Of a stretch of DNA of 64,000 nt, positions 27,451 through 50,094 are shown piece after piece. Position 1 is the stretch's first letter; every line of letters begins with the position of its first letter. This DNA is from Odiellus spinosus (Eukaryota > Arthropoda > Arachnida > Opiliones > Phalangiidae): positions 11,906,501 through 11,970,500 of the forward strand of contig OY987226.1 of assembly GCA_963920705.1 (NCBI GenBank), read 5' to 3'. Position numbers and translations under genes: made by a program. The notes beneath the pieces were generated by a model. It ran no database searches. It was given only the letters and a program-made list of their open reading frames with translations, and was not told where the DNA came from.

Positions 27451-28588
27451 TTCTATGAGCACGTCTAGTTGTAGAATTTTTTAAATGTATTTTTTGAATT
27501 TCTAATTTTGATTTTGGTGGGTTTGGATTTATTTTCAAGTTTTCAATATCTTGGGAACAAAAAATGTGAATGAGACAGGTCCTTTAAAATTGATATGATA
27601 CGGAATAACTAAAAAAAAAAATGACTATATTATTTCGTAAATGATCAAGCTAGCTCGAAGCGTTTCATTAATTATGTATTTTATTTTTTATTTTCCCGGG
27701 GTATATTGAGCAGGGGAATATTGAATAGGGTGGAGGGGAAACTGTTTCATTCCATTTATGCATTAGCACGAGGGCTGATAATAAAACTAGCCAAAAAATG
27801 TAAATTTAAGGATTAACGGAGATGTAAGGCACTCGCATTCGATAATATCAACTATAAACGAACAATTAAGAGAAAAACAAGGTGGCTAATTAAGGTAGTA
27901 ATACTATATCACCCATAATTAGTGTTCAAAGGAGGGTTTCAACGGCTTCTGATAAGAGTAATAAGAAAAACGTAAAATCTAGAAAGTGATACATCAGCTT
28001 TCATTTAATACCCTTTAACGTACACGAGTGTAAAATAATATGAAATTTTCTTTCATTTTTAACTCCTATTTATACCGATATTAAACTATCAGAAAGTTTA
28101 AACTCAACAAAGATTATTATAAAATATTAATTTCCCCGAATAGAATTTGAGGGATGGAGTTAAAAAAAGGCAGAGAAATTATCTCGCGCGCTATCGTTCG
28201 CCGTATAAAATTAAACCATCATTAATATGCAAAGGAGTCCCGAAAAGAAACGACATCTCTCATTAGCACCCTGGACGCCTTTCCTCAACGTTTTCCCTTC
28301 CCCCTTTTTCTCGTTCTCTCTTCCGTCTTTATTTAAACGGCTCCCCCCTCCCTTCCTAGCGGCATTTTTCCAATTAATTACAATTACATTTATTATAAGC
28401 GAATTAATTAAGCTAATCTAAAGACCCACTTTTCTCTCTTTCGGCTGTTTTTCACGGAAAGTCGGTTTCTCTTTTCTCGTTTTCGCGCCAAAAGTTCGCG
28501 GTAGTAGTATGAAAATGAGCGTTTAAGCACAGGAGGTGCCAAGAGGTGCCGGAGGTGCCGGAGGTGCCAAGAGGTGCCGGAGGTGCCC

Positions 28589-28690
28589 AATTTTTTTTTT
28601 TTTTTTTTTTCAAAATTTTTTCATCCGGGTTTCGAACCCGGTACCTCATGTATGTGGGGATGACGTTTCACACCACTACACTACGTCTTC
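28589..28690 (-). mobile_element. tRNA-Val-derived SINE in the left Polinton arm
   Basis: Read on the minus strand, an A-box-like CGTAGTGTAGTGG is followed about 40 bp later by a B-box GGTTCGAAACC inside a perfect 5-bp T-stem, CCGGG/CCCGG. An oligo-A tail follows (poly-T at 28589-28610 on the plus strand). The D-arm and T-arm resemble tRNA-Val, and the loop region reads CCACA. The acceptor stem no longer pairs, so this is a retroposed tRNA-like element and not a functional tRNA gene. Confidence 0.6.
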
Positions 28691-29159
28691 TTATCAACTT
28701 TTAAACTATTTTCCATCCTTATCTATATTCTCGGTTCTTATCTCTATGTTCAGATATCACGTGATTGAAAGTTTAAATTTTAAGGCGCGAAGATATGGGA
28801 AAATCAGTTAGCTTTGGTATCTCTACCATTTACAAAATACCATATGAAGATAGGGTTAACCACGAATTTCGTCAATTATGTATGTTTAGAATGCGTATTA
28901 AATGCGTGTACGAACCAATATTAAAACCAATACTGCAACTTAAACAAATGAAATATGAGTGATATGGGAAAACCCAAAACGTCATTATATCAAAGGTCGC
29001 GTATTTTCATGGTAAAACATCTAGCTCCATCGTATAGATAAAGTCATTTTACGAAACTCCTGATACTCATCTAGACCTGCACTCTTCTGGTAAGTATTTT
29101 TTTAAGATCTTAAAGTCATATATATTCGATGATACTCCAATATTCTCTCATTTATCGAT

Positions 29160-29795
29160 ATGGATTTAAGTCTGCAACACCCTTTTAACGGACTGGTGGC
29201 TGGAGTAACAGGATGTGGAAAAAGCGTCTTTGTTGCGAAATTAATTGAACACAAGGAAATTAGAATTTCGCCCCCACCCGAACGGATAATATGGTGTTAT
29301 ACTGAATACCAAGACAAACTATTTAATTCCATATCGAGCCATACCCCAAGCGTGGAATTTCACGAAGGTCTATTGGATGTAGGCACTTTAAACGCCAACG
29401 TTAGAAACTTTGTTATATTAGACGATCTTTTATGCGAAATCGCTAATAACAAGGAAGTTACCAACTTATTTATTCGAGGATCCCATCATCGGAATACCTC
29501 AGTATTAATTTTAATGCAAAACCTCTACTACCCAGGAAAGGAAATTCGAACATTGAATCTCAACGCTCATTATCTGATAATCTTTAAAACACCGAGAGAC
29601 CAATCTGCGATCCTACATTTGGCGAAACAGATATCTCCAGTCAACAGTAAATACGTTGTGGACGCGTTTAGACAAGCCACAGCTATCAGTTACGGATATC
29701 TATTCGTAGACCTCAAAGCTACGACCCCGGAAGATAGAAGACTAAAGACCGGGATTTTACCAGGAGAACAAGCCGCCATTTTTCTACCAAAATGA
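29160..29795 (+). CDS. Polinton packaging ATPase (left arm)
   Basis: The frame encodes 211 residues with Walker A GVTGCGKS at about 15-22 and a Walker B-like block ending VILDDLL at about 84-90. This fits the A32/FtsK-HerA type genome-packaging ATPases of Polintons and related viruses, which drive DNA into capsids. The stop overlaps the next start in an ATGA. A near-identical copy lies in the right arm. It is part of a fossil element. Confidence 0.85.
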   Translation: MDLSLQHPFNGLVAGVTGCGKSVFVAKLIEHKEIRISPPPERIIWCYTEYQDKLFNSISSHTPSVEFHEGLLDVGTLNANVRNFVILDDLLCEIANNKEVTNLFIRGSHHRNTSVLILMQNLYYPGKEIRTLNLNAHYLIIFKTPRDQSAILHLAKQISPVNSKYVVDAFRQATAISYGYLFVDLKATTPEDRRLKTGILPGEQAAIFLPK

Positions 29796-30271
29796 CCGGA
29801 ATAATCGAAGCAAACTTCTTCAGAGTTCAAGACCAATGGATCGTGAAAGAAATAACACTATTCGTGAAGGAGACGGGCGAACACGAGGTATGGATCTTTA
29901 AAGCGCCATTCCCATTCACGGACTTATCGTCTAAGGATAAAAGACAATGTCAATGGCTGACGAGGAACAGTTGCGACTTACGCTGGGACGAAGGAGATCA
30001 TCCATTCGAAGCTCAGACTGAAATTGCCAAAATCATACGAGAGAAAGCCATTACTTTTATAACCAAAGGCTTAGAAAAATCTATCGTGTTATCAAGGTTT
30101 TTGAAGACTGAAGTCGCTAACGCCGAAGATTTGGGCTGCCCAAGACTAGTAACTATAATTTGTGGAACGCCCAGAAGTTGTACGTTTCACCGAGACGAAA
30201 ACAATTGTACGCTCGTGAAAGCTGCCCGATTAGCTACATGGCTCCGCCGAAGAGAGTACACGAGCACTTAG
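29792..30271 (+). CDS. Conserved Polinton protein of unknown function, 159 aa (left arm)
   Basis: This frame overlaps the ATPase stop by 4 bases. It has an N-terminal sheet-like region (ITLFVKETGEHEVWIFKAPF). A later KGLEKSIVLSRFL block and a Cys/His set (GCPRL, ...CTFHRDENNCTL) could bind metal. Proteins of this layout recur beside Polinton ATPases, but I do not recognise a biochemical function. A copy is in the right arm. Confidence 0.6.
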   Translation: MTGIIEANFFRVQDQWIVKEITLFVKETGEHEVWIFKAPFPFTDLSSKDKRQCQWLTRNSCDLRWDEGDHPFEAQTEIAKIIREKAITFITKGLEKSIVLSRFLKTEVANAEDLGCPRLVTIICGTPRSCTFHRDENNCTLVKAARLATWLRRREYTST

Positions 30272-30576
30272 ACTTTCTAAAATATCTGAGTTCGTGTAAC
30301 GCGTGTCAACGAAACGCCGCCATTAAATACGCGAGTAAAGAAGAATTAAAAACCATCGCCGAATGTTGTATAAATATACTGCAGGGTAACGTTTCTCTCA
30401 CAGATGACGAGAAGAAACGACTGAAGAAGCATTGCAATTCCATACGTCGCGTGGCCAAGAAAAATACTCCTGCTAAACGAAGACAAATTTTAATTCAAAA
30501 AGGTGGATTTCTCCCAATATTACTTCCGATAATCAGTTCGATAGCAGGAGCTATCCTATCTAAAGTTATCAATTAA
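30238..30576 (+). CDS. Small conserved Polinton protein, 112 aa (left arm)
   Basis: I start it at the ATG giving MAPPKRVHEHLDFLKYL. The frame is open further upstream only through the preceding gene. A helical, Cys-containing N-terminal half is followed by LTDDEKKRLKKH and a C-terminal QKGGFLPILLPIISSIAGAI hydrophobic segment. A QKGGF plus hydrophobic tail is common in small Polinton virion-like proteins; the role is unknown. The start overlaps the previous frame. Confidence 0.55.
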   Translation: MAPPKRVHEHLDFLKYLSSCNACQRNAAIKYASKEELKTIAECCINILQGNVSLTDDEKKRLKKHCNSIRRVAKKNTPAKRRQILIQKGGFLPILLPIISSIAGAILSKVIN

Positions 30577-30578
30577 AG

Positions 30579-31199
30579 ATGGCGAAAAAAATGCTATTAA
30601 TTTCCGAGGAGACGTTCCAAAGACTTAATTCGGAGAAAGACCTCAAAGTGGATAAAACTTTGGAATTGGAAAAGGTCGATAAAATTAAAGACATTCTCGA
30701 TGATCCCAATTTGAACAACACGGACAAAATTAATCGCTATAATCACGTGCTCTCGAGGGTTATTAATAAAAGATCGAAGAAAAAAGTTAAAAAACCGAAA
30801 ATACAAAATTGGAGTGCGGAGATTGCTTCCGGCGTGCCGTCATATATGACCTCGGAGTGTTTAGATTTATACAAGTGGTTAGAGTTATCATTGAAAATTA
30901 AATGGACTGACGCCGGGGAGTTGATTTACAACAAGCGTAGAGTCGTAGGATCGAACATCGTCGATCTCCTAGCTTATTCAGTATCAAAATCCAAGAAAAA
31001 AATCGCCGTCACGGGCTCGAAAGAGTTCTACGAATTGTTGTATAAAGTGAACGCGCCAAGATCTCTAATAAAAATCCGCAAACGTGACGTCATCCCACCC
31101 GAGAAGAGGGAATATAAAGATGAAACGGAAGATGAGTATTATTCTGACGATAGCGGACCAATGAAGGGTCGCGGTTTCTGTAATTGGATTTCATTGTAA
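30579..31199 (+). CDS. Conserved Polinton protein, 206 aa (left arm)
   Basis: It begins 3 bases after the previous stop. The N-terminal half is charged and helical (about residues 1-75), with a basic linker KRSKKKVKKPKIQ. A second domain is followed by an acidic tail, EYKDETEDEYYSDDSG. It resembles accessory structural proteins in other Polintons, but no function is recognised. Confidence 0.5.
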   Translation: MAKKMLLISEETFQRLNSEKDLKVDKTLELEKVDKIKDILDDPNLNNTDKINRYNHVLSRVINKRSKKKVKKPKIQNWSAEIASGVPSYMTSECLDLYKWLELSLKIKWTDAGELIYNKRRVVGSNIVDLLAYSVSKSKKKIAVTGSKEFYELLYKVNAPRSLIKIRKRDVIPPEKREYKDETEDEYYSDDSGPMKGRGFCNWISL

Positions 31200-31263
31200 T
31201 ATTTATACCAATAAAATACACTCGAATATATCTTCTCGATTCATTTATTAATTAGGCTTTGAC

Positions 31264-31452
31264 ATGGAGAGTGGTAATGTCGAGGTTGTCTCTGTAGGAC
31301 TTTTAGCGTCTCTATTCGAGTCATTTATAAATTCTCCCAAGTTATTAACTGCAGTTTTAATTGTATTTATAATAATAATTATAGAAGTTAGCGATTTTGT
31401 ATTCTGGCATTATAGTACTTCGAACAACTGTTCATTCAATGGAAGAACTTAA
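31264..31452 (+). CDS. Small single-pass membrane protein, 62 aa (left arm)
   Basis: It contains one strongly hydrophobic segment, LLTAVLIVFIIIIIEV, at about residues 28-43 and no known domain. Its 3' end slightly overlaps the integrase start. Presence in both arms follows from the arm duplication and is not independent support. Confidence 0.4.
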   Translation: MESGNVEVVSVGLLASLFESFINSPKLLTAVLIVFIIIIIEVSDFVFWHYSTSNNCSFNGRT

Positions 31453-32509
31453 AAAAATATATAATAAGGTTTCGGATCCGGGCTCTTACGGTAGTGTTGA
31501 CGGCTTATACCGAGCGGCTAAAGACCGAGGATTAAAGGTTACTGTCAGAGAAATAAGCGATTTCTTGAAAACCCAAGATACTTATACGCTTCACAGGAGT
31601 GCGAGGAAACACTTCACTAGAAATGAAACTATAGTCTACGGAATCGACGAACAGTGGCAAATCGACTTGGCTGATTTGAAAAGCATTACCAGATATAATA
31701 ATGGTTTCCGTTATCTATTATGCTGTATCGACGTCTTCAGTAAGTTTGCCTTCGTGGTTGCGATCAAGGACAAGAAAGGAAAGACTATTCTCGGAGCGTT
31801 AAACGGCATTTTAGATTCCGGTCGTTCGCCGAAACGAATCCAATCGGATCACGGTAATGAGTTTGTATGCAAGGAAGTACAAAACGAGTTGAAACGTAGA
31901 GGGATAAAGTTTTTCGCCCCTGAATCGGAACTGAAAGCGACGATAGTGGAGAGATTTAATCGGACTTTGAAGACTCGAATGTACCGTTATTTTACGGAAA
32001 ATAATACCTTCAAATATATCAATGTTCTAAAAGAGATGGTGAAAGCTTATAATCATAGTTATCATCGATCTATAAAGTGTAAACCCGTCGATGTCACGCC
32101 AGCTACATCTAAACGTGTTTGGGAAAATCTATATGGTGACGTCGATTTCTCGACTCCGCTTTCTTTCCCCTTTGATGTTGGTGACGTAGTTCGTATAAGT
32201 AAACACAAGAATCTCTTCGATAAGGGATACATACCCACATGGTCGGAAGAACTTTTCAAAATTTCCGAGAGATTAGCTCGTAGTCCTCCTGTATATAAGA
32301 TACGCGACTTGAAAGAAGAGCTCATTACCGGGATTTTTTACCGAGAGCAACTACAGAAAATTGGCAAGGACCTGAGTAACAGCGCTTTTAAAATCGAAAA
32401 AGTGTTGAAAAAACGACGCAAGGCTGACGGAAGTATCGAGAGATTCGTCCGCTGGAAAGGATACCCGCCATCATTCGACAGTTGGGTGCAGGAAATTGAC
32501 CTTGCATGA
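31439..32509 (+). CDS. Polinton integrase with chromodomain (left arm)
   Basis: From the first ATG (MEELKKIYNKV) this is a 356-residue DDE-type retroviral-like integrase. It has an N-terminal DNA-binding region, a catalytic core starting near YGIDEQWQIDLADL with FRYLLCCIDVFSKFAF and RIQSDHGNEF, and a conserved ERFNRTLK block. It ends in a chromodomain (FKIEKVLKKRR to RWKGYPPSFDSWVQ). It is of the C. elegans F54H12.3 type. Its known role is inserting element DNA into the host genome. It overlaps the minor capsid start. Part of a fossil element. Confidence 0.9.
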   Translation: MEELKKIYNKVSDPGSYGSVDGLYRAAKDRGLKVTVREISDFLKTQDTYTLHRSARKHFTRNETIVYGIDEQWQIDLADLKSITRYNNGFRYLLCCIDVFSKFAFVVAIKDKKGKTILGALNGILDSGRSPKRIQSDHGNEFVCKEVQNELKRRGIKFFAPESELKATIVERFNRTLKTRMYRYFTENNTFKYINVLKEMVKAYNHSYHRSIKCKPVDVTPATSKRVWENLYGDVDFSTPLSFPFDVGDVVRISKHKNLFDKGYIPTWSEELFKISERLARSPPVYKIRDLKEELITGIFYREQLQKIGKDLSNSAFKIEKVLKKRRKADGSIERFVRWKGYPPSFDSWVQEIDLA

Positions 32510-33777
32510 TGACGTTCTACATAACCCTACCGTCAGACAGTTCTATGAGTTACTTCCCAGGGAATACAATCAGTAAATTTCGAACACATTTACCGGAATC
32601 GGTTAAATTACAAGGTCCGTACGAAGTTGCTTTGGTGGAATTCAGTTATCCCCACACATGGAGCAATATGAGATCGTCGTGCTGGATATCGTTAACTAAC
32701 CACGGGGAAAATAGAAATAGCACGAGTCATTCTAGAGCGGTAGAACTCCCCGCGGGCTACTACGGAAATATAGAAGACCTATTGGAGCAACTCAATTACG
32801 ACGAAGATGATATCTCGAACGTGACTATACTGAAAAAGGAGACGCCAGTCGAAGGTGATATGTTTGAGTCGGAGACGACGACGAATGTTAAATACACGTT
32901 TAGTTATATCGCGCGATTAAGACGTGTTGAAGTTTCCGTAAAACCGGATCACTCGTTAACTATACCGGGAGAGTTGGCGGTCATGTTGGGATTTACGAAA
33001 GACCATACAAAAACTACGACGATCGTCCACGCGAGAATAGCCAGTTATCCGGTGGATTTAAACGCTGGTCTTCATTCACTCTTCATATATTCCGATATCG
33101 TTGAAAGTAGGGCTGTAGGTGACGTTCATGTTCCGCTTCTACGAATAACGAGCGTTCAAGGGAATGACGGGGATACGATAGACAGAGAATTTTCTCGTCC
33201 TCATTACCTCCCAGTTTCCTGCAATTCCTTTCAATCTATCGATCGTTTCCATTACGATAAAATTCGAGCGCAGTATGGAGATGCCGCCAAACTTTTATTT
33301 ACGGACACAGACTCCCTGACGTACCACATCGAAACGGACGATCTATACAAAGATTTTGCCGCTAATAGCGACGCCTACGACTTCTCAGGGTGTCCGAAAG
33401 ATCACCCACTTTACAGTGAAACCAACAAGAAAGTTCTCGGCAAATTTAAAGACGAATTAGATGGGACTCCAGTTCAGGAATTTTGCGGACTTCGTCCCAA
33501 AATGTATTCTATGATATCGGCCAAGGATGAGAAGAAGACCGCAAAGGGCATTTGCCGCCGCGTCGTTAAAAAAAACGTTCGCCATGCTCAGTATCGCGAA
33601 TGTCTTCTTAAACGAAAGCTTACGGTCGCGTCTATGAAGCGCATCGTTAGCAAGAAGCACGAACTTTTCACGGTAAAACAAACCAAACTTTGTCTCAATC
33701 CATGTGACGACAAGCGATACATTCTAGACGGTGTTTCAACTCTCGCACATGGACATTTTAAAATTCCAAAGGAATAG
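32506..33777 (+). CDS. Composite frame: minor capsid protein part and polymerase B remnant
   Basis: The first part, inside the arm, is the penton-like minor capsid protein that begins MMTFYITLPSDSSMSYFPGN. The second part, from about 33243 in the unique centre, is a C-terminal piece of protein-primed DNA polymerase B, recognised by LLFTDTDSLTYHIET. The two do not belong to one natural protein. Their contact marks where the arm meets the unique centre. Confidence 0.75.
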   Translation: MMTFYITLPSDSSMSYFPGNTISKFRTHLPESVKLQGPYEVALVEFSYPHTWSNMRSSCWISLTNHGENRNSTSHSRAVELPAGYYGNIEDLLEQLNYDEDDISNVTILKKETPVEGDMFESETTTNVKYTFSYIARLRRVEVSVKPDHSLTIPGELAVMLGFTKDHTKTTTIVHARIASYPVDLNAGLHSLFIYSDIVESRAVGDVHVPLLRITSVQGNDGDTIDREFSRPHYLPVSCNSFQSIDRFHYDKIRAQYGDAAKLLFTDTDSLTYHIETDDLYKDFAANSDAYDFSGCPKDHPLYSETNKKVLGKFKDELDGTPVQEFCGLRPKMYSMISAKDEKKTAKGICRRVVKKNVRHAQYRECLLKRKLTVASMKRIVSKKHELFTVKQTKLCLNPCDDKRYILDGVSTLAHGHFKIPKE

Positions 33778-33805
33778 TTTTTATAAAAATATCTTGTATT
33801 TTTTT

Positions 33806-33840
<35 letters not shown>

Positions 33841-34164
33841 TATTTTTTTTTCATTCAACTGTTATTTTTTTCTTTAACTGAATATATATTCAATAATAAA
33901 TATATAGTGCAAAATCAAACTTGGAAATTATTTATACTTAAGCTTATTATTCATACTTAAGTCTAAACCAGAGGTCAGGGTGGAGGGGTTGCCCCGCGCC
34001 TACCGCGCAGCGACGCGTTTCAAAATTAACCGCACGCGTTTGAAATTTGAATCGCGCGCGCGCCCGCGACTTCCGCGCACTGCCGCCCTCCCGTCAATTA
34101 TATGTGTGAAACTTAAATTATGTTAGGTTAGGTTAGGTTAGATAAAAAAACACAAGTATTTTTC
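33778..34164. other. Polinton central spacer between convergent genes
   Basis: It contains an (ATTT)n run at about 33800-33840, a very GC-rich patch at about 33985-34090 (GCGCGCGCGCCCGCGACTTC) unlike the rest of the element, and (TTAGG)n at 34123-34141. No gene was seen. The position is between the ends of the polymerase remnant and the protease, where termination would be expected. Confidence 0.6.
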
Positions 34165-34629
34165 TTAAAAAAAGTTTATTGAAAATCTCTTATACATAAA
34201 TTCAGAAATCATTTTATCATTAACATTTTTATCTTTTTTAAATCTTGCACATATATTAAACAATTTAACACCTCTGCATCTATACAATGCAAAATAAACA
34301 CAATATCCGCCACAAGTCATACTAAAGTTCCCTTGTAATTGCTTGGAATTAAATGTAACAGTTATACTGTTTCTTTCCACAAAATCGTTAAATTTAAACA
34401 TGTCGGGAGGGTTACCGAAACTGTCAAAGAACTCTGTATTCTTATTACTAGAAAAATAGATAGCCGTCCAATGTTCGCCATCGGTATGTGATAATCCCGT
34501 ATTTACAATATAGAGTGAAGGAAAGGTTTTAACAGTTTTGGGTAAATTATCGGCTGCGAAAATACCTCGAAACAGACCTTTAGTGAACGAATCTTTTTCC
34601 ATTATTTTAGCTAACTGCTGAGACTCCAT
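34165..34629 (-). CDS. Polinton maturation protease (adenovirus/Ulp1-type)
   Basis: The frame encodes 154 residues. GEHWTAIYF (His region), TEFFDSFGNPP (acidic and substrate region) and SMTCGGYCVYFALY (Cys nucleophile region) occur in the order of adenovirus C5 and Ulp1-like cysteine proteases. The family role is cleavage of capsid precursors. It lies 3 bases after the major capsid stop on the same strand. Part of a fossil element. Confidence 0.85.
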   Translation of the reverse strand: MESQQLAKIMEKDSFTKGLFRGIFAADNLPKTVKTFPSLYIVNTGLSHTDGEHWTAIYFSSNKNTEFFDSFGNPPDMFKFNDFVERNSITVTFNSKQLQGNFSMTCGGYCVYFALYRCRGVKLFNICARFKKDKNVNDKMISEFMYKRFSINFF

Positions 34630-34632
34630 TTT

Positions 34633-35979
34633 CTAATTGGTATAATCGTAAATAACGTTCCTGTTTTTGTCAATTTCAATTAAATTTTGAAATTCGGCGT
34701 AGTATAATACGCTAACAGTCTTCGGCAAATCCCTGGCGAACTTTAATTCTAATCGCAAATTACCATTCTTTATCAACTGAAATTGCGAAGCTGAACAACT
34801 GAGGTCAGCACTCAAATCAAATACGAAAATACAGTTCCCACCAGGAAACTCTTCGCGTGAGATAAAGTTCCCTTCGTCTATGAGCCATTGGGATGTTTGA
34901 GTGAAAAGATTAGTGTACGATCTCATGTACTGATGTCCCTCGAAATTAGGGGTTAAAGGCTTGTGAGGAACGCTAGTTCCGTCGAGGTAGAGAGCGATAT
35001 GATTTAGATCAAAGTGTTGGAAATTAAAGGGTGACTGGGCATAATCACCTAGATACGCGTTCTGTTCTACCAGAGCGAAAAGGACACGTTTGGGTAACTG
35101 TCCCATAAAGAGATTATCTCTAACGCAAATTTTAGTTCCGCTATTTATGGAAAAAGAGTTACACTCCGTTCGAGTTATTGGATATTTCATGGTAGCTAGT
35201 TCGAGACATTTGGCGTGGGCAATTGTAATCTCGGGAGTTAATTTTACTTTTCTGATATACAGGGAAGCGAGTTCGTATTGTACCTTCCATCTAACGCCAC
35301 CCGCTAAGGTTTGAATACAAAATTCGTTGGAGCTTTTAATAAATTTAAATTTCAAGTCAATCATGTTCGGAATAAAACGAGACTGTTGACACAAATCCGT
35401 GTGAACCGCGCCAATCATATCAATGGTCCCTTGTTTAGCGAAACTTGCTCTTTTCTTGAAACCTTCATTGTCCGACGGGGTGTTGAATTTTCCGGCAGTA
35501 TCCTTGTAGTACATGGCAGCCGTTAGAAAACTCGTTTTCGCAGGTCCACCAAAAGTGACGGTAGTTTGAAACATGGCCTTGTAGGCATAGTTCGGCGGCG
35601 ATGGTGTTACCGATCTATCGCCCAAGGAAACGTGTACCTCGCTAAAAAGGCTCGAATGAAACAGATTCACGGGCGCTACCACATCCGCCGGTGTGGTGAT
35701 TACCCCAGCCGCATCGATTACTGCCGCCGCTGGAATTGTTCTCCCGTCCGCTGGGTCGACGAGTCTAACTTGTAGATGTAACAAAGTTTTGGACAAATCA
35801 ATGTACGTATCGGAGTTTCCGGCCACGGCGAAGGTTAGAGTTGAATTTTCGTTAATGTTCGAGATGGGACTATACTCAACCCATTCTCCACTCACAATAC
35901 TAGCGTTTGTGAGCGGAACGTTGAAAAGTTCGACTTCGGAACTAACCGAACCTTGGGAATCGGGATGGATATGAGCCAT
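34633..35979 (-). CDS. Polinton major capsid protein
   Basis: The frame encodes 448 residues beginning MAHIHPDSQGSVSSEVELFN and containing GNSDTYIDLSKTLLHLQVRL. This resembles the F54H12.2-type family found next to Polinton integrases, taken to be the double jelly-roll major capsid protein. Length fits. It sits between the pVI-like gene and the protease, the usual Polinton morphogenesis block. Confidence 0.75.
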   Translation of the reverse strand: MAHIHPDSQGSVSSEVELFNVPLTNASIVSGEWVEYSPISNINENSTLTFAVAGNSDTYIDLSKTLLHLQVRLVDPADGRTIPAAAVIDAAGVITTPADVVAPVNLFHSSLFSEVHVSLGDRSVTPSPPNYAYKAMFQTTVTFGGPAKTSFLTAAMYYKDTAGKFNTPSDNEGFKKRASFAKQGTIDMIGAVHTDLCQQSRFIPNMIDLKFKFIKSSNEFCIQTLAGGVRWKVQYELASLYIRKVKLTPEITIAHAKCLELATMKYPITRTECNSFSINSGTKICVRDNLFMGQLPKRVLFALVEQNAYLGDYAQSPFNFQHFDLNHIALYLDGTSVPHKPLTPNFEGHQYMRSYTNLFTQTSQWLIDEGNFISREEFPGGNCIFVFDLSADLSCSASQFQLIKNGNLRLELKFARDLPKTVSVLYYAEFQNLIEIDKNRNVIYDYTN

Positions 35980-36464
35980 TATATTGTAGAAAATATATCG
36001 GAGGGTTTTAAGAACGGTCTTCTCTTCTTCCTGTTCGTCGTTGAACTGACTAGCCTTCGACGCTTACACTTTCTTTTATGCCCATTTCCAGTCATTCTAG
36101 CGATTTCGTCCGCGGCACTGATTACGACATCTCTCGCGGCGTCTTTACCTCGAGATTTAGCCGCGGATTTTACGGGAATTCCACTAGCTACATCAGTAAC
36201 GATTTTAGATCCAGTATTTAACAGTTTTTTCCCAAGATACATGGCTCCCTTCTTCAAAAGTGGTACGGCTCGACGGAAGGCCGAGGCGATAAAGTTTCCT
36301 AGACCGTATCCTTGTTGAACAGGAAGACCATGGTATACGGGTATCGAACCCTTTCCTATTTGACTTTGGAAATATTTTGCGTAGTCAACCTTAATCCCGT
36401 GTCCAATTTGATTTAAAAAGTGACGATCGTAGTCCGACTGAGTGGAGGACAGTTTTTGCTTCAT
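35979..36464 (-). CDS. Small basic pVI/core-like Polinton protein
   Basis: The frame encodes 161 residues. A Gly-rich amphipathic segment, GYGLGNFIASAFRRAVPLLK, is followed by a strongly basic tail (GHKRKCKRRR, NRKKRRPF). This resembles the adenovirus pVI/pX-like proteins that accompany Polinton capsid genes and are proposed to bind DNA or membranes. It abuts the major capsid start. Confidence 0.6.
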   Translation of the reverse strand: MKQKLSSTQSDYDRHFLNQIGHGIKVDYAKYFQSQIGKGSIPVYHGLPVQQGYGLGNFIASAFRRAVPLLKKGAMYLGKKLLNTGSKIVTDVASGIPVKSAAKSRGKDAARDVVISAADEIARMTGNGHKRKCKRRRLVSSTTNRKKRRPFLKPSDIFSTI

Positions 36465-36524
36465 GATGCGTCTCGTTTAACTATCTCGATAAGAATGGCG
36501 AGCGCGTCCATACTGCCGGCTTAT

Positions 36525-37364
36525 TTATAAGGGCGACCACATTCTTCGAGGTCTAAAATGTAGAGTCGCGTGAACTTTACCTCTTTCGAACTTGACGGGT
36601 ACTCCCATTTCACTCATAACGTTAATTTCGATAGATTGAAAGGAATTGCAGGAAACTGGGAGGTAATGAGGACGAGAAAATTCTCTGTCTATCGTATCCC
36701 CGTCATTCCCTTGAACGCTCGTTATTCGTAGAAGCGGAACATGAACGTCACCTACAGCCCTACTTTCAACGATATCGGAATATATGAAGAGTGAATGAAG
36801 ACCAGCGTTTAAATCCACCGGATAACTGGCTATTCTCGCGTGGACGATCGTCGTAGTTTTTGTATGGTCTTTCGTAAATCCCAACATGACCGCCAACTCT
36901 CCCGGTATAGTTAACGAGTGATCCGGTTTTACGGAAACTTCAACACGTCTTAATCGCGCGATATAACTAAACGTGTATTTAACATTCGTCGTCGTCTCCG
37001 ACTCAAACATATCACCTTCGACTGGCGTCTCCTTTTTCAGTATAGTCACGTTCGAGATATCATCTTCGTCGTAATTGAGTTGCTCCAATAGGTCTTCTAT
37101 ATTTCCGTAGTAGCCCGCGGGGAGTTCTACCGCTCTAGAATGACTCGTGCTATTTCTATTTTCCCCGTGGTTAGTTAACGATATCCAGCACGACGATCTC
37201 ATATTGCTCCATGTGTGGGGATAACTGAATTCCACCAAAGCAACTTCGTACGGACCTTGTAATTTAACCGATTCCGGTAAATGTGTTCGAAATTTACTGA
37301 TTGTATTCCCTGGGAAGTAACTCATAGAACTGTCTGACGGTAGGGTTATGTAGAACGTCATCAT
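36525..37364 (-). CDS. Polinton minor capsid (penton-like) protein
   Basis: The frame encodes 279 residues. The start MMTFYITLPSDSSMSYFPGN is followed by a LQGPYEVALVEFSYPHTWSN block, characteristic of the small penton-like protein in Polintons. Residues before about 245 are shared with the left arm; the rest lies in unique sequence. The start overlaps the integrase stop. Confidence 0.75.
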   Translation of the reverse strand: MMTFYITLPSDSSMSYFPGNTISKFRTHLPESVKLQGPYEVALVEFSYPHTWSNMRSSCWISLTNHGENRNSTSHSRAVELPAGYYGNIEDLLEQLNYDEDDISNVTILKKETPVEGDMFESETTTNVKYTFSYIARLRRVEVSVKPDHSLTIPGELAVMLGFTKDHTKTTTIVHARIASYPVDLNAGLHSLFIYSDIVESRAVGDVHVPLLRITSVQGNDGDTIDREFSRPHYLPVSCNSFQSIEINVMSEMGVPVKFERGKVHATLHFRPRRMWSPL

Positions 37365-38431
37365 GCAAGGTCAATTTCCTGCACCCAACTGTCGAATGAT
37401 GGCGGGTATCCTTTCCAGCGGACGAATCTCTCGATACTTCCGTCAGCCTTGCGTCGTTTTTTCAACACTTTTTCGATTTTAAAAGCGCTGTTACTCAGGT
37501 CCTTGCCAATTTTCTGTAGTTGCTCTCGGTAAAAAATCCCGGTAATGAGCTCTTCTTTCAAGTCGCGTATCTTATATACAGGAGGACTACGAGCTAATCT
37601 CTCGGAAATTTTGAAAAGTTCTTCCGACCATGTGGGTATGTATCCCTTATCGAAGAGATTCTTGTGTTTACTTATACGAACTACGTCACCAACATCAAAG
37701 GGGAAAGAAAGCGGAGTCGAGAAATCGACGTCACCATATAGATTTTCCCAAACACGTTTAGATGTAGCTGGCGTGACATCGACGGGTTTACACTTTATAG
37801 ATCGATGATAACTATGATTATAAGCTTTCACCATCTCTTTTAGAACATTGATATATTTGAAGGTATTATTTTCCGTAAAATAACGGTACATTCGAGTCTT
37901 CAAAGTCCGATTAAATCTCTCCACTATCGTCGCTTTCAGTTCCGATTCAGGGGCGAAAAACTTTATCCCTCTACGTTTCAACTCGTTTTGTACTTCCTTG
38001 CATACAAACTCATTACCGTGATCCGATTGGATTCGTTTCGGCGAACGACCGGAATCTAAAATGCCGTTTAACGCTCCGAGAATAGTCTTTCCTTTCTTGT
38101 CCTTGATCGCAACCACGAAGGCAAACTTACTGAAGACGTCGATACAGCATAATAGATAACGGAAACCATTATTATATCTGGTAATGCTTTTCAAATCAGC
38201 CAAGTCGATTTGCCACTGTTCGTCGATTCCGTAGACTATAGTTTCATTTCTAGTGAAGTGTTTCCTCGCACTCCTGTGAAGCGTATAAGTATCTTGGGTT
38301 TTCAAGAAATCGCTTATTTCTCTGACAGTAACCTTTAATCCTCGGTCTTTAGCCGCTCGGTATAAGCCGTCAACACTACCGTAAGAGCCCGGATCCGAAA
38401 CCTTATTATATATTTTTTTAAGTTCTTCCAT
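37361..38431 (-). CDS. Polinton integrase with chromodomain (right arm)
   Basis: The same 356-residue protein as in the left arm, identical as far as can be read: DDE-type core with YGIDEQWQIDLADL, then a C-terminal chromodomain (RWKGYPPSFDSWVQ). It overlaps the minor capsid start by 4 bases, as in the left arm. Confidence 0.9.
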   Translation of the reverse strand: MEELKKIYNKVSDPGSYGSVDGLYRAAKDRGLKVTVREISDFLKTQDTYTLHRSARKHFTRNETIVYGIDEQWQIDLADLKSITRYNNGFRYLLCCIDVFSKFAFVVAIKDKKGKTILGALNGILDSGRSPKRIQSDHGNEFVCKEVQNELKRRGIKFFAPESELKATIVERFNRTLKTRMYRYFTENNTFKYINVLKEMVKAYNHSYHRSIKCKPVDVTPATSKRVWENLYGDVDFSTPLSFPFDVGDVVRISKHKNLFDKGYIPTWSEELFKISERLARSPPVYKIRDLKEELITGIFYREQLQKIGKDLSNSAFKIEKVLKKRRKADGSIERFVRWKGYPPSFDSWVQEIDLA

Positions 38432-38606
38432 TGAATGAACAGTTGTTCGAAGTACTATAATGCCAGAATACAAAATCGCTAACTTCTATAATTATTATTA
38501 TAAATACAATTAAAACTGCAGTTAATAACTTGGGAGAATTTATAAATGACTCGAATAGAGACGCTAAAAGTCCTACAGAGACAACCTCGACATTACCACT
38601 CTCCAT
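38418..38606 (-). CDS. Small single-pass membrane protein, 62 aa (right arm)
   Basis: The mirror copy of 31264-31452 with the same hydrophobic segment. Function unknown. Confidence 0.4.
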   Translation of the reverse strand: MESGNVEVVSVGLLASLFESFINSPKLLTAVLIVFIIIIIEVSDFVFWHYSTSNNCSFNGRT

Positions 38607-38670
38607 GTCAAAGCCTAATTAATAAATGAATCGAGAAGATATATTCGAGTGTATTTTATTGGTATAAATA

Positions 38671-39291
38671 TTACAATGAAATCCAATTACAGAAACCGCG
38701 ACCCTTCATTGGTCCGCTATCGTCAGAATAATACTCATCTTCCGTTTCATCTTTATATTCCCTCTTCTCGGGTGGGATGACGTCACGTTTGCGGATTTTT
38801 ATTAGAGATCTTGGCGCGTTCACTTTATACAACAATTCGTAGAACTCTTTCGAGCCCGTGACGGCGATTTTTTTCTTGGATTTTGATACTGAATAAGCTA
38901 GGAGATCGACGATGTTCGATCCTACGACTCTACGCTTGTTGTAAATCAACTCCCCGGCGTCAGTCCATTTAATTTTCAATGATAACTCTAACCACTTGTA
39001 TAAATCTAAACACTCCGAGGTCATATATGACGGCACGCCGGAAGCAATCTCCGCACTCCAATTTTGTATTTTCGGTTTTTTAACTTTTTTCTTCGATCTT
39101 TTATTAATAACCCTCGAGAGCACGTGATTATAGCGATTAATTTTGTCCGTGTTGTTCAAATTGGGATCATCGAGAATGTCTTTAATTTTATCGACCTTTT
39201 CCAATTCCAAAGTTTTATCCACTTTGAGGTCTTTCTCCGAATTAAGTCTTTGGAACGTCTCCTCGGAAATTAATAGCATTTTTTTCGCCAT
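38671..39291 (-). CDS. Conserved Polinton protein, 206 aa (right arm)
   Basis: The mirror copy of 30579-31199, same length, with the basic linker and the acidic tail. No function is recognised. Confidence 0.5.
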   Translation of the reverse strand: MAKKMLLISEETFQRLNSEKDLKVDKTLELEKVDKIKDILDDPNLNNTDKINRYNHVLSRVINKRSKKKVKKPKIQNWSAEIASGVPSYMTSECLDLYKWLELSLKIKWTDAGELIYNKRRVVGSNIVDLLAYSVSKSKKKIAVTGSKEFYELLYKVNAPRSLIKIRKRDVIPPEKREYKDETEDEYYSDDSGPMKGRGFCNWISL

Positions 39292-39293
39292 CT

Positions 39294-39632
39294 TTAATTG
39301 ATAACTTTAGATAGGATAGCTCCTGCTATCGAACTGATTATCGGAAGTAATATTGGGAGAAATCCACCTTTTTGAATTAAAATTTGTCTTCGTTTAGCAG
39401 GAGTATTTTTCTTGGCCACGCGACGTATGGAATTGCAATGCTTCTTCAGTCGTTTCTTCTCGTCATCTGTGAGAGAAACGTTACCCTGCAGTATATTTAT
39501 ACAACATTCGGCGATGGTTTTTAATTCTTCTTTACTCGCGTATTTAATGGCGGCGTTTCGTTGACACGCGTTACACGAACTCAGATATTTTAGAAAGTCT
39601 AAGTGCTCGTGTACTCTCTTCGGCGGAGCCAT
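39294..39632 (-). CDS. Small conserved Polinton protein, 112 aa (right arm)
   Basis: The mirror copy of 30238-30576, starting MAPPKRV and ending in the QKGGF hydrophobic tail. Confidence 0.55.
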   Translation of the reverse strand: MAPPKRVHEHLDFLKYLSSCNACQRNAAIKYASKEELKTIAECCINILQGNVSLTDDEKKRLKKHCNSIRRVAKKNTPAKRRQILIQKGGFLPILLPIISSIAGAILSKVIN

Positions 39633-40078
39633 GTAGCTAATCGGGCAGCTTTCACGAGCGTACAATTGTTTTCGTCTCGGTGAAACGTACAACTTCTTGG
39701 CGTTCCACAAATTATAGTTACTAGTCTTGGGCAGCCCAAATCTTCGGCGTTAGCGACTTCAGTCTTCAAAAACCTTGATAACACGATAGATTTTTCTAAG
39801 CCTTTGGTTATAAAAGTAATGGCTTTCTCTCGTATGATTTTGGCAATTTCAGTCTGAGCTTCGAATGGATGATCTCCTTCGTCCCAGCGTAAGTCGCAAC
39901 TGTTCCTCGTCAGCCATTGACATTGTCTTTTATCCTTAGACGATAAGTCCGTGAATGGGAATGGCGCTTTAAAGATCCATACCTCGTGTTCGCCCGTCTC
40001 CTTCACGAATAGTGTTATTTCTTTCACGATCCATTGGTCTTGAACTCTGAAGAAGTTTGCTTCGATTATTCCGGTCAT
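39599..40078 (-). CDS. Conserved Polinton protein of unknown function, 159 aa (right arm)
   Basis: The mirror copy of 29792-30271. The ATGA overlap with the ATPase is kept. Confidence 0.6.
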   Translation of the reverse strand: MTGIIEANFFRVQDQWIVKEITLFVKETGEHEVWIFKAPFPFTDLSSKDKRQCQWLTRNSCDLRWDEGDHPFEAQTEIAKIIREKAITFITKGLEKSIVLSRFLKTEVANAEDLGCPRLVTIICGTPRSCTFHRDENNCTLVKAARLATWLRRREYTST

Positions 40079-40710
40079 TTTGGTAGAAAAATGGCGGCTT
40101 GTTCTCCTGGTAAAATCCCGGTCTTTAGTCTTCTATCTTCCGGGGTCGTAGCTTTGAGGTCTACGAATAGATATTCGTAACTTATAGCTGTGGCTTGTCT
40201 AAACGCGTCCACAACGTATTTACTGTTGACTGGAGATATCTGTTTCGCCAAATGTAGGATCGCAGATTGGTCTCTCGGTGTTTTAAAGATTATCAGATAA
40301 TGAGCGTTGAGATTCAATGTTCGAATTTCCTTTCCTGGGTAGTAGAGGTTTTGCATTAAAATTAATACTGAGGTATTCCGATGATGGGATCCTCGAATAA
40401 ATAAGTTGGTAACTTCCTTGTTATTAGCGATTTCGCATAAAAGATCGTCTAATATAACAAAGTTTCTAACGTTGGCGTTTAAAGTGCCTACATCCAATAG
40501 ACCTTCGTGAAATTCCACGCTTGGGGTATGGCTCGATATGGAATTAAATAGTTTGTCTTGGTATTCAGTATAACACCATATTATCCGTTCGGGTGGGGGC
40601 GAAATTCTAATTTCCTTGTGTTCAATTAATTTCGCAACAAAGACGCTTTTTCCACATCCTGTTACTCCAGCCACCAGTCCGTTAAAAGGGTGTTGCAGAC
40701 TTAAATCCAT
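40075..40710 (-). CDS. Polinton packaging ATPase (right arm)
   Basis: The mirror copy of 29160-29795, with the same Walker A GVTGCGKS and Walker B-like VILDDLL. It is nearly identical to the left copy. Confidence 0.85.
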   Translation of the reverse strand: MDLSLQHPFNGLVAGVTGCGKSVFVAKLIEHKEIRISPPPERIIWCYTEYQDKLFNSISSHTPSVEFHEGLLDVGTLNANVRNFVILDDLLCEIANNKEVTNLFIRGSHHRNTSVLILMQNLYYPGKEIRTLNLNAHYLIIFKTPRDQSAILHLAKQISPVNSKYVVDAFRQATAISYEYLFVDLKATTPEDRRLKTGILPGEQAAIFLPK

Positions 40711-41189
40711 ATCGATAAATGAGAGAATATTGGAGTATCATCGAATATATATGACTTTAAGATCTTAAAAAAATACTTACCAGAAGAGTGCAGGTCTAGA
40801 TGAGTATCAGGAGTTTCGTAAAATGACTTTATCTATACGATGGAGCTAGATGTTTTACCATGAAAATACGCGACCTTTGATATAATGACGTGTTGGGTTT
40901 TCCCATATCACTCATATTTCATTTGTTTAAGTTGCAGTATTGGTTTTAATATTGGTTCGTACACGCATTTAATACGCATTCTAAACATACATAATTGACG
41001 AAATTCGTGGTTAACCCTATCTTCATATGGTATTTTGTAAATGGTAGAGATACCAAAGCTAACTGATTTTCCCATATCTTCGCGCCTTAAAATTTAAACT
41101 TTCAATCACGTGATATCTGAACATAGAGATAAGAACCGAGAATATAGATAAGGATGGAAAATAGTTTAAAAGTTGATAAGAAGACGTAG

Positions 41190-41278
41190 TGTAGTGGTGT
41201 GAAACGTCATCCCCACATACATGAGGTACCGGGTTCGAAACCCGGATGAAAAAATTTTGAAAAAAAAAAAAAAAAAAT
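41190..41278 (+). mobile_element. tRNA-Val-derived SINE in the right Polinton arm
   Basis: CGTAGTGTAGTGG (A-box) and GGTTCGAAACC (B-box) precede an oligo-A tail at about 41260-41278. It mirrors 28589-28690, so it was in the arm before the arm was copied. Confidence 0.6.
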
Positions 41279-41334
41279 TGGGCACCTCCGGCACCTCTTG
41301 GCACCTCCGGCACCTCCGGCACCTCCTGTGCTTA
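41279..41334. repeat. GGCACCTCC short tandem repeat in the Polinton tip
   Basis: About five 9-10 bp units (GGCACCTCC/TTGGCACCTCC). The left arm carries one more unit at 28532-28588. This is the largest difference seen between the arms. Confidence 0.8.
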
Positions 41335-41355
41335 AACGCTCATTTTCATACTACT

Positions 41356-42796
41356 CTTGTGACACCACGCATTAGCAGCCCAGCCATCTAACCACACCCG
41401 AGTTAACATACCCTGGATGAAACTTGTATCATCCGCGCTCTCTGCATGAGATTCAGTAAGGATCGAAATCCCTCAGCCTCATCCTAGAGGCAGGATGTAA
41501 CTAATCGTGTTAGAGGATTAAGAGACTTGGAGAAAATACGCGGGAATTTGCGATAAGGGAAGGATTCAATAAAGTATAGGAGCAACGAAAACTATAAACC
41601 ACCGTATGAAACCATAATTTTGGTTTGCGCGTAGGTGTAGTGTAAAAAATCGATGGATTTTTGCTCTAGAAAACCACTCCAAACGGCTTAGGTAGGGTTG
41701 TCTCTGTAAAAGTGTTCTAGCCTTATGGCCGGGTGCGCAAGTTCATAACTTATCTTCTATAAGTATGCCACTTCTATTTATTCTGTCGAATAAATCGGCG
41801 TTAAGTTACAATTTACGATAAACAGTAGTAAAACACGAATCACATTGCCAATTTCCGATAGACGAATGTTTTTAAAAAGGTTTCACGTGGATGAAATTGA
41901 AACATTGTATCACAGGCATTTTTTTTTTGCTCCTGGTGATTGACGAGCTAGGACATGTAGCCATTCAGCTCCAAAAATTTGACAAATTAAATAAAAAAGT
42001 ATGAAAAACTATACAATTTAAGAGCTGGACCACCACAATTAAATTAAATATTAGACAAGTTGATTAATTTTAGATTATTAAAGTTAAGTTAAGTTATATT
42101 TAAGGTTAGATTGATAAAATTTAAAAAATGAAAGTTAATTGAAGGTTAATTTAGTTAAACTTGTAACAAAAGCCAAAAAAAAAAATCACTCTAAAGTTTC
42201 AGCGGGAGTTAAATTAATTCGCCCCTCTATCTCTTAACATATCATAGAGATAAAAAACTAAATTTGGTGCAAATTTACATTTATTTGAAGTATATTATAT
42301 AAAACCGTGACATTTGGAGGTTGAAATAATCACCCCGCGGTGGGACTATAGATCCTATTGAATTATGCCTATATTGTCAGCCGATTTTAATCTGATCATA
42401 AGTCAGATGCCCTTACAGAAATAACGTTGGCACGTGTCTCCACCAACCTTTCCACCCCTTACCCTCCACACAGTGATTAGAGCGTTGTCTACGTTAATTA
42501 ACGCTTAGAGCCATTCATAGCGAAGAAATATTATCATTTTGTTGACCCCTCCATGTGCAGAAACCACAATTCCCCTAGCAATTTTAAATTCTAAAGAACA
42601 AAGAAGTTATGACTCTATGGAAGTTTCAATTAAAAACAATTTTTAAGAAGAACAATATCAAAGTTACATCAATTTAGCATTAAGTAAATTTTCTCAATTA
42701 AAATAAAATTTGCTTTTGGAGGTTCATTTCAAAGGCAATTTGATACGTTTGCATTATACGTGGTGTGGCTTTCCTATGGGCTTGATCATCTTGTTA
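41356..42796. other. Non-coding interval right of the Polinton
   Basis: No gene was seen. Positions 42415-42640 are a diverged copy of about 43895-44110 (CACTTGTCTCCACC-type start, AGAACAAAGAAGTTATGACT at the end), showing that part of the duplicated unit lies outside unit A as well. Confidence 0.55.
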
Positions 42797-44640
42797 AACC
42801 TAGTATTCTTTAGATAAATAGCTGTTTATTTGCGAAATGTATATTATGATATGGTATAGTTTTGTTTATTTCCTAAATGAAATCAATCAATCAAGTAATA
42901 GGGGATCGATTTCTCCGTTTCAAAAAATGATTTCAACTGGTGTAATAATGACATCACTGTGTGGTGAGAAAAATGTCACCATTTTATCGTTTGTTTTGAA
43001 TTTTTATTGTCGGATTTCTTTCGTATTTATTTCACAACCAAGGTTGTAGGGTTACCACAGAGCCATAGCCTATTCTGGGGTTACCAGGACAAACACAATT
43101 ATGCACAGTCAAAGCGAGGCTGTGCGTTAGGGAAGATGATTTTAAAGGAGCTAATTTTAAAGCAGATAGGGGCCTTTCAAAAGAGTAGAAATTTAAACAA
43201 AAATGATACGATAATACGCGCGGCATCTTGTTTCCTAACTAACTTGCACCGATTTTGGATAACATTTGTTATTTTATACTAGTTTGTTAACTTCTTGGCA
43301 CCAACTTTACAAGTTTCGAAATACATGTTTTGTCAAAATCCTAGGGTTCATTTTTAGTAATTTGACAAATCCAACGTGAAAAAATTCGGATTATAGAAAT
43401 TCGAAAAGATGTAAATTTAGGGATCAAATTGCAATTTTAAAATTGGACCACCCACTTTGGTACGGAATCAGTTGGACAATATATTGTAAATCCCACGAGT
43501 GACTGAATTTACAGTTCGGCCATGAATAATTAGGTTTAGTAATTATAATTGTAAGTTATCCTTTACGGAAGATTATTTTACACGGTGAATAACTTAAAAT
43601 AATATTGCAAACGTTGAAACTGCATTCACATCTATATACCTAACAAAAATATTTTTGTTTGTTAGATTGGAGATGGTGGTAAAATATCACCATCGAATAT
43701 ATAATATAACCGCTCGTAAATATAAAAATAAAACACCAGAGATAATGTTTTGTTTATTTTAGTTTTTCAAATGAAAAAACCATGAAAATTATCAAAATTT
43801 TTTTTTATATGTATATAAATATTGAGGGACCCCCAAATAAGGAATATATTAAAGATTTGTATTTTCTTTTTCCACATTTTTTTACGCGAAAACGTCGGCA
43901 CTTGTCTCCACCCTCTTTTCCATCCCCTAACCCTCAAGTGTGATTAGGGCATTGCCTACGTTAAATAGCGTAGGCAACGATTAGGGTCATTCATAGAGGA
44001 GAAATATCATAATTTTGTTGACCATTCTATGAGCAGAAACGAAAATTCCCCTAGCAATTTTAACTTCTAAAGAACAAAGAAGTTATGACTCTAAGAAAGT
44101 TTCAAGGGGCATCTCTTGATTCTATGCTAAGTTCGTTAGAAAAGGGAAGAGCTTAACTCTGATAGAACCGGACTGAAACATGCCGCGAGAGAGTGTTGAG
44201 GGGTAAATTGGGGCCAACTGGAGCTCGCGAAGTTTTTAATCGATTTTCACATATCTAACTTCTTTAGAGTAGAGGAAAACTAATGACAAATTAAGGAGTG
44301 GGATGCAAAATTATTGTTGGTTCAAGTTTGGGTTTTGGTTCATGGCTAATTCCACGCCTCGTGCTTTCTGTTCCTTCAAACTCTTTGAACAGACTGGGTG
44401 TACAATTGTTTTTCAGCTAATTAACAAATGGAGTAGAAAATGATGGTACAGTTGAATTTTAACAACGCTATAAGGGATAATAACGACGCAATTTTAAGTC
44501 GACTTTTAACATAAAAAACTCGTATAATTAAAGTGCCGTTAGCCGTTAGATTTAAAGGTTCTAAAATTAATTTCAAGACACCTTTAAAAGTAACGTTATC
44601 CGCTCTCGCCACGGGGAGGCCGCACTTAGAAAGAGCATTT

Positions 44641-44704
44641 GAATATATTTTAAATCCACTTCCCTCACTCAGAGTCATGAGAGAAGTGGTTTTAAAATAT
44701 ATTC
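44641..44704. repeat. 27-bp hairpin beside the array (unit A)
   Basis: GAATATATTTTAAATCCACT with TCCCTCA pairs with TGAGAGAAGTGGTTTTAAAA with TATATTC, around a 10-base loop. It is kept in unit B at 49882-49945. It could be a small MITE or a structured RNA or DNA end; it does not end a recognised gene. Confidence 0.6.
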
Positions 44705-44854
44705 TTATTTTTTTTTTATCATTTTTCTTTATTTTTATCGTTTTTTTTTTTATTTTTATATATTTTTTAATTTTTTTAATTATTATTTTTTTTTTCGATG
44801 AACTTTTTCAAAAACGCCCATACCTAGAATAAAAATTTCAAACACTTTTTTAGA

Positions 44855-47075: not shown

Positions 47076-47112
47076 ATGACCCAGCATAAGTTAGATCAAA
47101 AAAGTCACTTAC

Positions 47113-49881: not shown

Positions 49882-49945
49882 GAATATATTTTAAATCCAC
49901 TTCCCTCACTCAGAGTCATGAGAGAAGTGGTTTTAAAATATATTC
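49882..49945. repeat. 27-bp hairpin beside the array (unit B)
   Basis: The same hairpin as 44641-44704, at the constant offset. Confidence 0.6.
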
Positions 49946-50094
49946 TTATTTTTTTTTTATCATTTTTCTTTATTTTTATCGTTTTTTTTTATTTTTATAT
50001 ATTTTTTAATTTTTTTAATTATTATTTTTTTTTTTCGATGAACTTTTTCAAAAACGCCCATACCTAGAATAAAAATTTCAAACACTTTTTTAGA

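What the first reader, a model, noticed from the sequence alone, without database searches (positions are those of the whole stretch)
28503..41355. Polinton whose terminal inverted repeats have grown to about 4.7 kb and carry six or seven genes
Each arm holds the ATPase, four small proteins, the integrase and most of the minor capsid gene; the coordinate sum 69870 is constant over the arm. In the right half all genes run in one continuous orientation through to the protease, with the polymerase remnant converging on them as in ordinary Polintons. The left arm therefore looks like a copy of the right arm laid over the left end. Expansion of inverted terminal repeats is known in poxviruses and seen in adenoviruses. 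A similar event during protein-primed, panhandle-type replication would explain this, but that mechanism is my inference.
Basis: partly seen in the sequence, partly recalled or inferred. Interest (0 to 1): 0.85.

Follow-up and report, generated by a model that had tools for sequence, protein, structure and literature searches.

The report
Polinton with two copied right ends
A virus-like jumping element, probably in an animal genome, has lost its left end and most of its DNA-copying gene and carries there a mirrored copy of its right end with about six genes; the missing insertion footprint suggests that pieces of two elements were joined rather than one element growing longer ends.

Summary
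The element spans 28503-41355, with Maverick-type ends AGTAGT/ACTACT. Its inverted arms are 28503-33242 (4740 nt) and 36628-41355 (4728 nt); they differ by 4 substitutions and 12 gap columns. Each arm holds ATPase, three or four small genes, integrase and most of the minor capsid gene, which is complete only on the right. The single-copy centre holds a PW-like protein, a double-jelly-roll major capsid protein, a protease and the last 177 codons of a PolB. At 33242/33243 the left minor capsid frame runs straight into PolB.

The proposed mechanism is weaker. Both termini are exact, yet there is no 6-bp target duplication (CGCGGT versus CTTGTG). A genome that grew its repeats while free and was then integrated normally should have one. 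Two ends from two integration events, joined between oppositely oriented near-identical copies, explain the main features; an assembly join is not excluded, and the genome could not be searched. TIRs lengthened by internal sequence, and unmatched flanks, are known from the transposon Galileo. New variant of a known kind; moderate interest.

The parts
28503..33242 (+). left arm (inverted copy of the right arm, ending inside the minor capsid gene)
36628..41355 (-). right arm (undisturbed end)
28503..28592 (+). left terminus: AGTAGT end motif, GAGGTGCC minisatellite, poly-T
41278..41355 (-). right terminus with the same motif, one 10-base minisatellite unit and two T fewer
29160..29795 (+). ATPase, 211 aa (five weak Pfam matches, best Adeno_IVa2 E 2.3e-4; also FtsK, Pox_A32, Viral_helicase1, NPHP3_N; all below curated cut-off)
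29792..30271 (+). small protein, 159 aa
   Evidence: no Pfam match
30160..30576 (+). small protein, 138 aa from TTG, weak Adeno_PX match (below cut-off)
30579..31199 (+). small protein, 206 aa
   Evidence: no Pfam match
31264..31452 (+). possible 62-aa hydrophobic protein
   Evidence: ORF only
31397..32509 (+). integrase (rve + chromodomain, both above cut-off), 370 aa from TTG
32506..33777 (+). chimeric frame, 423 aa: minor capsid residues 1-245, a codon across the junction, then in frame the PolB C-terminus
33242..33243 (.). junction: last base shared with the right arm / first base that differs
33244..33777 (+). PolB remnant with the sequence FTDTDSL, 177 codons and stop
34165..34629 (-). 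adenain-like protease, 154 aa (Peptidase_C5 E 7e-4, 19.7 bits, cut-off 21.3)
34633..35979 (-). major capsid protein, 448 aa, double-jelly-roll fold
35979..36464 (-). 161-aa protein in the place of Maverick PW
   Evidence: name by position only, no Pfam match
36525..37364 (-). complete minor capsid protein, 279 aa; its last 103 bases lie beyond the right arm
37361..38473 (-). integrase, right copy
40075..40710 (-). ATPase, right copy (residue 179: Gly left, Glu right)
28497..28502 (+). left flanking hexamer CGCGGT, not matched on the right
41356..41361 (+). right flanking hexamer CTTGTG

Best explanation
A rearranged Polinton with two right ends. Two nearly identical young copies of one family, integrated at different sites in opposite orientations, were joined by a non-homologous break-and-join (deletion between neighbours, or a larger rearrangement). 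The join runs from within the minor capsid gene of one copy to within the PolB gene of the other. The result keeps the outer, right-type end of each copy, so each terminus is exact but the flanking hexamers differ. Shown: the arms, the exact termini, the absent duplication, the mCP/PolB junction, the complete right minor capsid gene, the loss of most of PolB. Inferred: the two parental copies, their orientation, and joining in the chromosome. The result has no complete polymerase gene; if anything still moves it, another Polinton must supply PolB (inference).
For: No target duplication at exact termini: 2 of 6 positions match, and no shared 5-mer within the 33 bases left and 45 bases right that were compared. 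The junction is non-homologous by protein: both minor capsid homologues tested end at 33243 on the left; of five PolB homologues tested four begin at 33244-33247 and one, P0185, at 33190. The right minor capsid gene is complete: 32 of 33 homologues cover 94% or more of it, and P0241-P0244 share its C-terminus. The core frames other than PolB are open in both copies, so the element looks young and a 6-bp duplication should not have decayed (inference). Precedent: 12 chimeric Galileo copies with unmatched 7-bp flanks, which the authors explain by ectopic recombination and conversion, while allowing for assembly by-products (PMC3573991, passages).
Against: No second copy or sibling product was found: no further piece of the family in the flanks of this window, and the genome could not be searched. 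It needs two near-identical copies. The four substitutions all lie in the outer 35% of the arm (chance about 0.015, looked at after the fact), whereas two independent copies should differ evenly. Duplications are often not found in related elements (in the best cryptophyte host 34% of PLVs have conserved ones; PMC12220804, passages), so a missing one is not proof.
Confidence: 0.48

Rival explanations
1. Terminal-repeat expansion in a free linear genome: during protein-primed replication or repair of a broken end, the right end was copied onto the PolB-side end, giving a genome with two right ends and two origins, replicated with PolB from a helper, and then integrated.
For: One-step replacement of one end by the other is the geometry seen. 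Precedents: Streptomyces, TIRs of 210 kb enlarged to about 829 kb by arm replacement (PMC5869714, passages); a proposed ITR recombination in a poxvirus strain that duplicated genes (PMC7198643, passages). Ends are exact, as those of a free linear genome would be.
Against: Integration by the element's own integrase should leave a 6-bp duplication; none is there. The Streptomyces case is homologous recombination between duplicated loci; here no shared protein sequence is seen at the junction.
Confidence: 0.22
2. Assembly artefact: the assembler joined two loci inside the near-identical arm sequence, or mixed haplotypes; the mCP/PolB join itself may or may not be real.
For: A missing target duplication is what a join of two loci inside a repeat would give. 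The window contains a 200-base run of N at 5567-5766, so it is probably a scaffold. Arms of 4.7 kb with 4 substitutions are hard to tell apart with short reads.
Against: A simple mirrored copy should be identical; here 4 substitutions, one 10-base repeat unit and two T differ, though read errors could give some of that. An assembler joins at identical sequence and would not by itself create an in-frame mCP/PolB junction (inference).
Confidence: 0.25
3. Break repair in place: the left end of an integrated copy broke in PolB and was repaired by copying the right arm, from the same or a free copy, ending at the terminus and sealed to the left flank.
For: Gives the observed arms and can lose the left duplication (inference).
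Against: Copying from the integrated right arm should run on into the right flank; left and right flanks cease to match at the terminus. It needs a free linear template to stop exactly there.
Confidence: 0.05

Closest known systems
Polinton/Maverick elements of animals
   Same: AGTAGT//ACTACT ends, rve integrase with chromodomain, DJR major capsid protein, minor capsid protein, adenain-like protease, ATPase, convergent PolB
   Different: TIR 4.7 kb with genes against 46-1447 bp in the intact vertebrate Mavericks (134 elements; PMC8097293, passages and section 7); PolB reduced to 177 codons; no 6-bp duplication; ATPase lies outboard of the integrase on the capsid strand, whereas in vertebrate Mavericks it is in the PolB module
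Galileo (P-superfamily transposon of Drosophila), extended-TIR and chimeric copies
   Same: TIRs lengthened by inverted recruitment of internal sequence; chimeric copies bounded by unmatched flanks (PMC3573991, passages)
   Different: unrelated element; its chimeric copies were seen by divergent TIRs, whereas the arms here are nearly identical
Poxvirus ITR recombination (MVA-CR19)
   Same: a proposed recombination that changed the left end and duplicated genes into the ITR (PMC7198643, passages)
   Different: free virus genome, not integrated
Streptomyces chromosomal arm replacement
   Same: one end replaces the other and the TIR grows (PMC5869714, passages)
   Different: bacterial chromosome, homologous recombination between duplicated loci
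Polinton-like viruses
   Same: long TIRs: many PLV contigs (PMC4642659, passages); in cryptophytes hundreds to thousands of bases, with TIRs of 100 bp to 8 kb kept by the authors' filter (PMC12220804, passages)
   Different: protist or metagenome elements; whether genes lie inside their longest TIRs was not checked

Membership tests
Polinton/Maverick (intact element) | terminal inverted repeats with the (AGT)2//(ACT)2 end motif | tested here: met
   AGTAGT at 28503, ACTACT ending 41355; motif from PMC8097293
Polinton/Maverick (intact element) | retroviral-type integrase | tested here: met
   rve 44.2 bits (cut-off 32.6) and Chromo 26.1 (cut-off 25.1)
Polinton/Maverick (intact element) | double-jelly-roll major capsid protein | tested here: met
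Polinton/Maverick (intact element) | minor capsid protein | tested here: inconclusive
   right copy complete, 33 homologues, but none carries a name or Pfam domain; one chance-level Pfam match; identity rests on recall and gene position next to integrase and MCP
Polinton/Maverick (intact element) | adenovirus-type protease and packaging ATPase | tested here: inconclusive
   Peptidase_C5 E 7e-4 and Adeno_IVa2 E 2.3e-4, both just below curated cut-offs
Polinton/Maverick (intact element) | complete protein-primed PolB | tested here: not met
   only the C-terminal 177 codons; two IMG/VR relatives have frames of 1286 and 1313 aa
Polinton/Maverick (intact element) | 6-bp target site duplication | tested here: not met
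   CGCGGT versus CTTGTG, 2 of 6; best with either end shifted by up to 9 bases is 4 of 6
Linear genome with expanded gene-bearing ITRs (poxvirus-like) | whole genes inside both ITRs | tested here: met
   ATPase to integrase frames complete in both arms
Linear genome with expanded gene-bearing ITRs (poxvirus-like) | replicates or spreads as a unit in this form | not testable with these tools
   The genome search gave no answer

The most novel reading that the evidence does not exclude
A two-right-ended, polymerase-deficient Polinton genome arose by end replacement during protein-primed replication, was replicated and packaged with PolB from a helper Polinton (like a defective interfering virus), and was then integrated here by an event that left no duplication.
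Probability: 0.2. Interest if true: 0.7.

Novelty: new variant of a known kind. Interest (0 to 1): 0.42.

Why it matters
Polintons are held to replicate as linear, protein-primed genomes (recalled), but Maverick particles had not been observed (PMC8097293, abstract as listed). A genome with two right ends occurring at several loci with proper target duplications would be a fossil of such replication and of helper-dependent spread. If it is a single chromosomal join, it shows how Polinton copies can rearrange, and how gene-bearing inverted repeats can arise without any replication mechanism.

Tried and rejected
Own-genome search for siblings, the same junction and short-arm copies: the genome search was asked nine times with the same request and never answered. 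Viral contigs: integrase, none of 9 matched stretches; MCP alignment, none of 55; the 28-base terminus, none; PolB alignment, 2 of 101. These two (L001, L002; 14493 of 17398 and 12565 of 15128 bases held) are distant: apart from PolB only the integrase has a match at E 1e-3, in L001 (24.9% identity, E 5e-13), and none of the window's capsid proteins or protease does. PDB by sequence with the chimeric frame and with the P5A-ATPase exon: nothing. Pfam with the PolB remnant and with P0121 and P0125: nothing at E 0.01. tRNA and Rfam scans show no gene in the termini. Chance palindrome: rejected by length. A simple mirrored assembly copy: disfavoured by the differences between arms; a join of two loci is kept as a rival. 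Microhomology at the junction: the strands part after CTATCGA; the parental PolB DNA is unknown, so no conclusion. Earlier reports: ten paper searches. Polinton + inverted terminal repeat + protein-primed + duplicated gave 0 papers; the 7 papers and the 4 show no Polinton case of this kind in title or start of abstract. So I found no earlier report, within the open-access library and these terms. A paper on a PolB fusion in Polinton-like viruses (PMC12721341) was seen in the listing only. Adenovirus precedents of end duplication are recalled; one search did not list them. PMC8363768 (passages) gave nothing used.
Full report
What is there. The window holds an inverted repeat of 4650 nt (28593-33242 and 36628-41277, 3385 nt apart). 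In the register sum 69870 it has four mismatches. Taken to the termini, the arms are 28503-33242 (4740 nt) and 36628-41355 (4728 nt), with 4 substitutions and 12 gap columns, the gaps all in the terminal minisatellite and poly-T. The outer ends are AGTAGTATGAAAATG on both sides; the 38-base terminus occurs nowhere else in the window, even with up to 9 substitutions. This is the (AGT)2//(ACT)2 motif reported for vertebrate Mavericks (PMC8097293, section 7).

The junction. The 423-aa left frame is the minor capsid protein for 245 residues; codon 246 spans the junction, and the rest is the C-terminus of a PolB in the same frame. Searching residues 240-423 gave 580 homologues, 120 listed; the best is 81% identical, four of the 120 carry PF03175 and some are named DNA-directed DNA polymerase. 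Aligned back to the window, minor capsid homologues P0241 and P0244 end at 33243 on the left but run to 36528 on the right; of five PolB homologues four begin at 33244-33247, and one, P0185, at 33190. The right minor capsid gene is complete: 32 of 33 homologues cover 94% or more of it, one covers 75%. I aligned 6 of the 33: P0241-P0244 share its C-terminus, P0245 and P0246 end a little earlier. Two IMG/VR relatives have PolB frames of 1286 and 1313 aa and the remnant matches their last part, so roughly 1100 residues are gone (inference). The Pfam scan of the remnant alone gave nothing. The right half is therefore undisturbed, and the left arm is a copy of the right arm laid over the PolB side.

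The flanks. Maverick integration leaves a 6-bp duplication (PMC8097293, passages; PMC12220804, passages). Here the left hexamer is CGCGGT and the right one CTTGTG, 2 of 6 alike; no 5-mer is shared within 33 bases left and 45 right, and shifting either end by up to 9 bases gives at best 4 of 6. The core frames other than PolB are open, so the element looks young and a duplication should still be readable (inference). Left and right flanks cease to match at the terminus. The right flank carries host DNA: a P5A-ATPase exon at 63397-63795 (PF23143, 102.6 bits, cut-off 27).

What this says about origin. A genome whose repeats grew while it was free should have been integrated with a duplication. 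Copying in place from the right arm should have run on into the right flank. Two exact ends without a duplication are most simply two ends made by two integration events. A deletion from the minor capsid gene of one copy to the PolB gene of a second, inverted copy gives the arms, the junction and the flanks. Exchanges between copies are recorded for Galileo, where 12 chimeric copies have unmatched 7-bp flanks and where longer TIRs were built from inverted internal sequence (PMC3573991, passages).

Results against my reading. No second copy was seen: tblastn of ten window proteins and eight homologues found no further Polinton piece in the flanks, only two chance matches at E 0.70 and 0.75, and the genome search did not complete. 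All four substitutions lie in the outer 35% of the arm (about 0.015 by chance, looked at after the fact), which does not fit two independent copies well and might reflect conversion between the arms. Missing duplications are common in some related elements (in the best cryptophyte host 34% of PLVs have conserved ones). The window has a 200-N gap elsewhere, and without reads a join of two loci inside the arms cannot be ruled out.

Place among known things. It derives from a Polinton but fails two tested features of an intact one (full PolB, 6-bp duplication). Its repeats are longer than the 46-1447 bp of intact vertebrate Mavericks, but cryptophyte workers kept TIRs up to 8 kb in their filter, so length alone is not unheard of. 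The ATPase outboard of the integrase on the capsid strand differs from the vertebrate layout. The host species was not identified; the named capsid homologues among the 120 listed come from Araneus, Leptosia, Melitaea, Parnassius, Planococcus, Acanthaster and Dendronephthya, so an animal host is inferred.

Noticed in passing
28628-28683 (-) and 41187-41242 (+): Exact matches to A-box and B-box consensus of a Pol III promoter (consensus recalled), followed by an A-rich run, just inside both termini; ARAGORN and Rfam see no tRNA. It could be a tRNA-derived SINE insert or a promoter of the element.
   Followed up: partly
32506-33777: The rearrangement leaves one open chimeric frame, minor capsid residues 1-245 fused in frame to the PolB C-terminus (423 aa in all).
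   Followed up: yes
28503-33242 versus 36628-41355: All four substitutions and all gaps between the arms lie in the outer 35%; the inner 3.07 kb is identical (chance about 0.015 for the substitutions, post hoc).
   Followed up: partly
42828-47076 and 48077-52316: Tandem duplication of about 4.2 kb, 92.9% identical, each copy with a large G+C-rich 24-base minisatellite array; begins 1.5 kb right of the element.
   Followed up: no
14532-15952: Two adjoining arrays of 35-base and 21-base units with frames of 318 and 301 aa on opposite strands and strong GC skew.
   Followed up: no
6877-6996: Hairpin-forming stretch of 116-120 bases, perhaps a MITE; it gives sub-threshold plant microRNA matches on both strands in Rfam.
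   Followed up: no
60185-63795 (-): Exons of a host P-type ATPase, P5A type (PF23143 102.6 bits, PF13246 29.9 bits, both above cut-off).
   Followed up: partly
29695 and 30172 (40175 and 39698): Two of the four arm differences change a residue: ATPase residue 179 (Gly left, Glu right) and residue 5 of the 138-aa frame (Gln left, Lys right; silent in the overlapping 159-aa frame).
   Followed up: no
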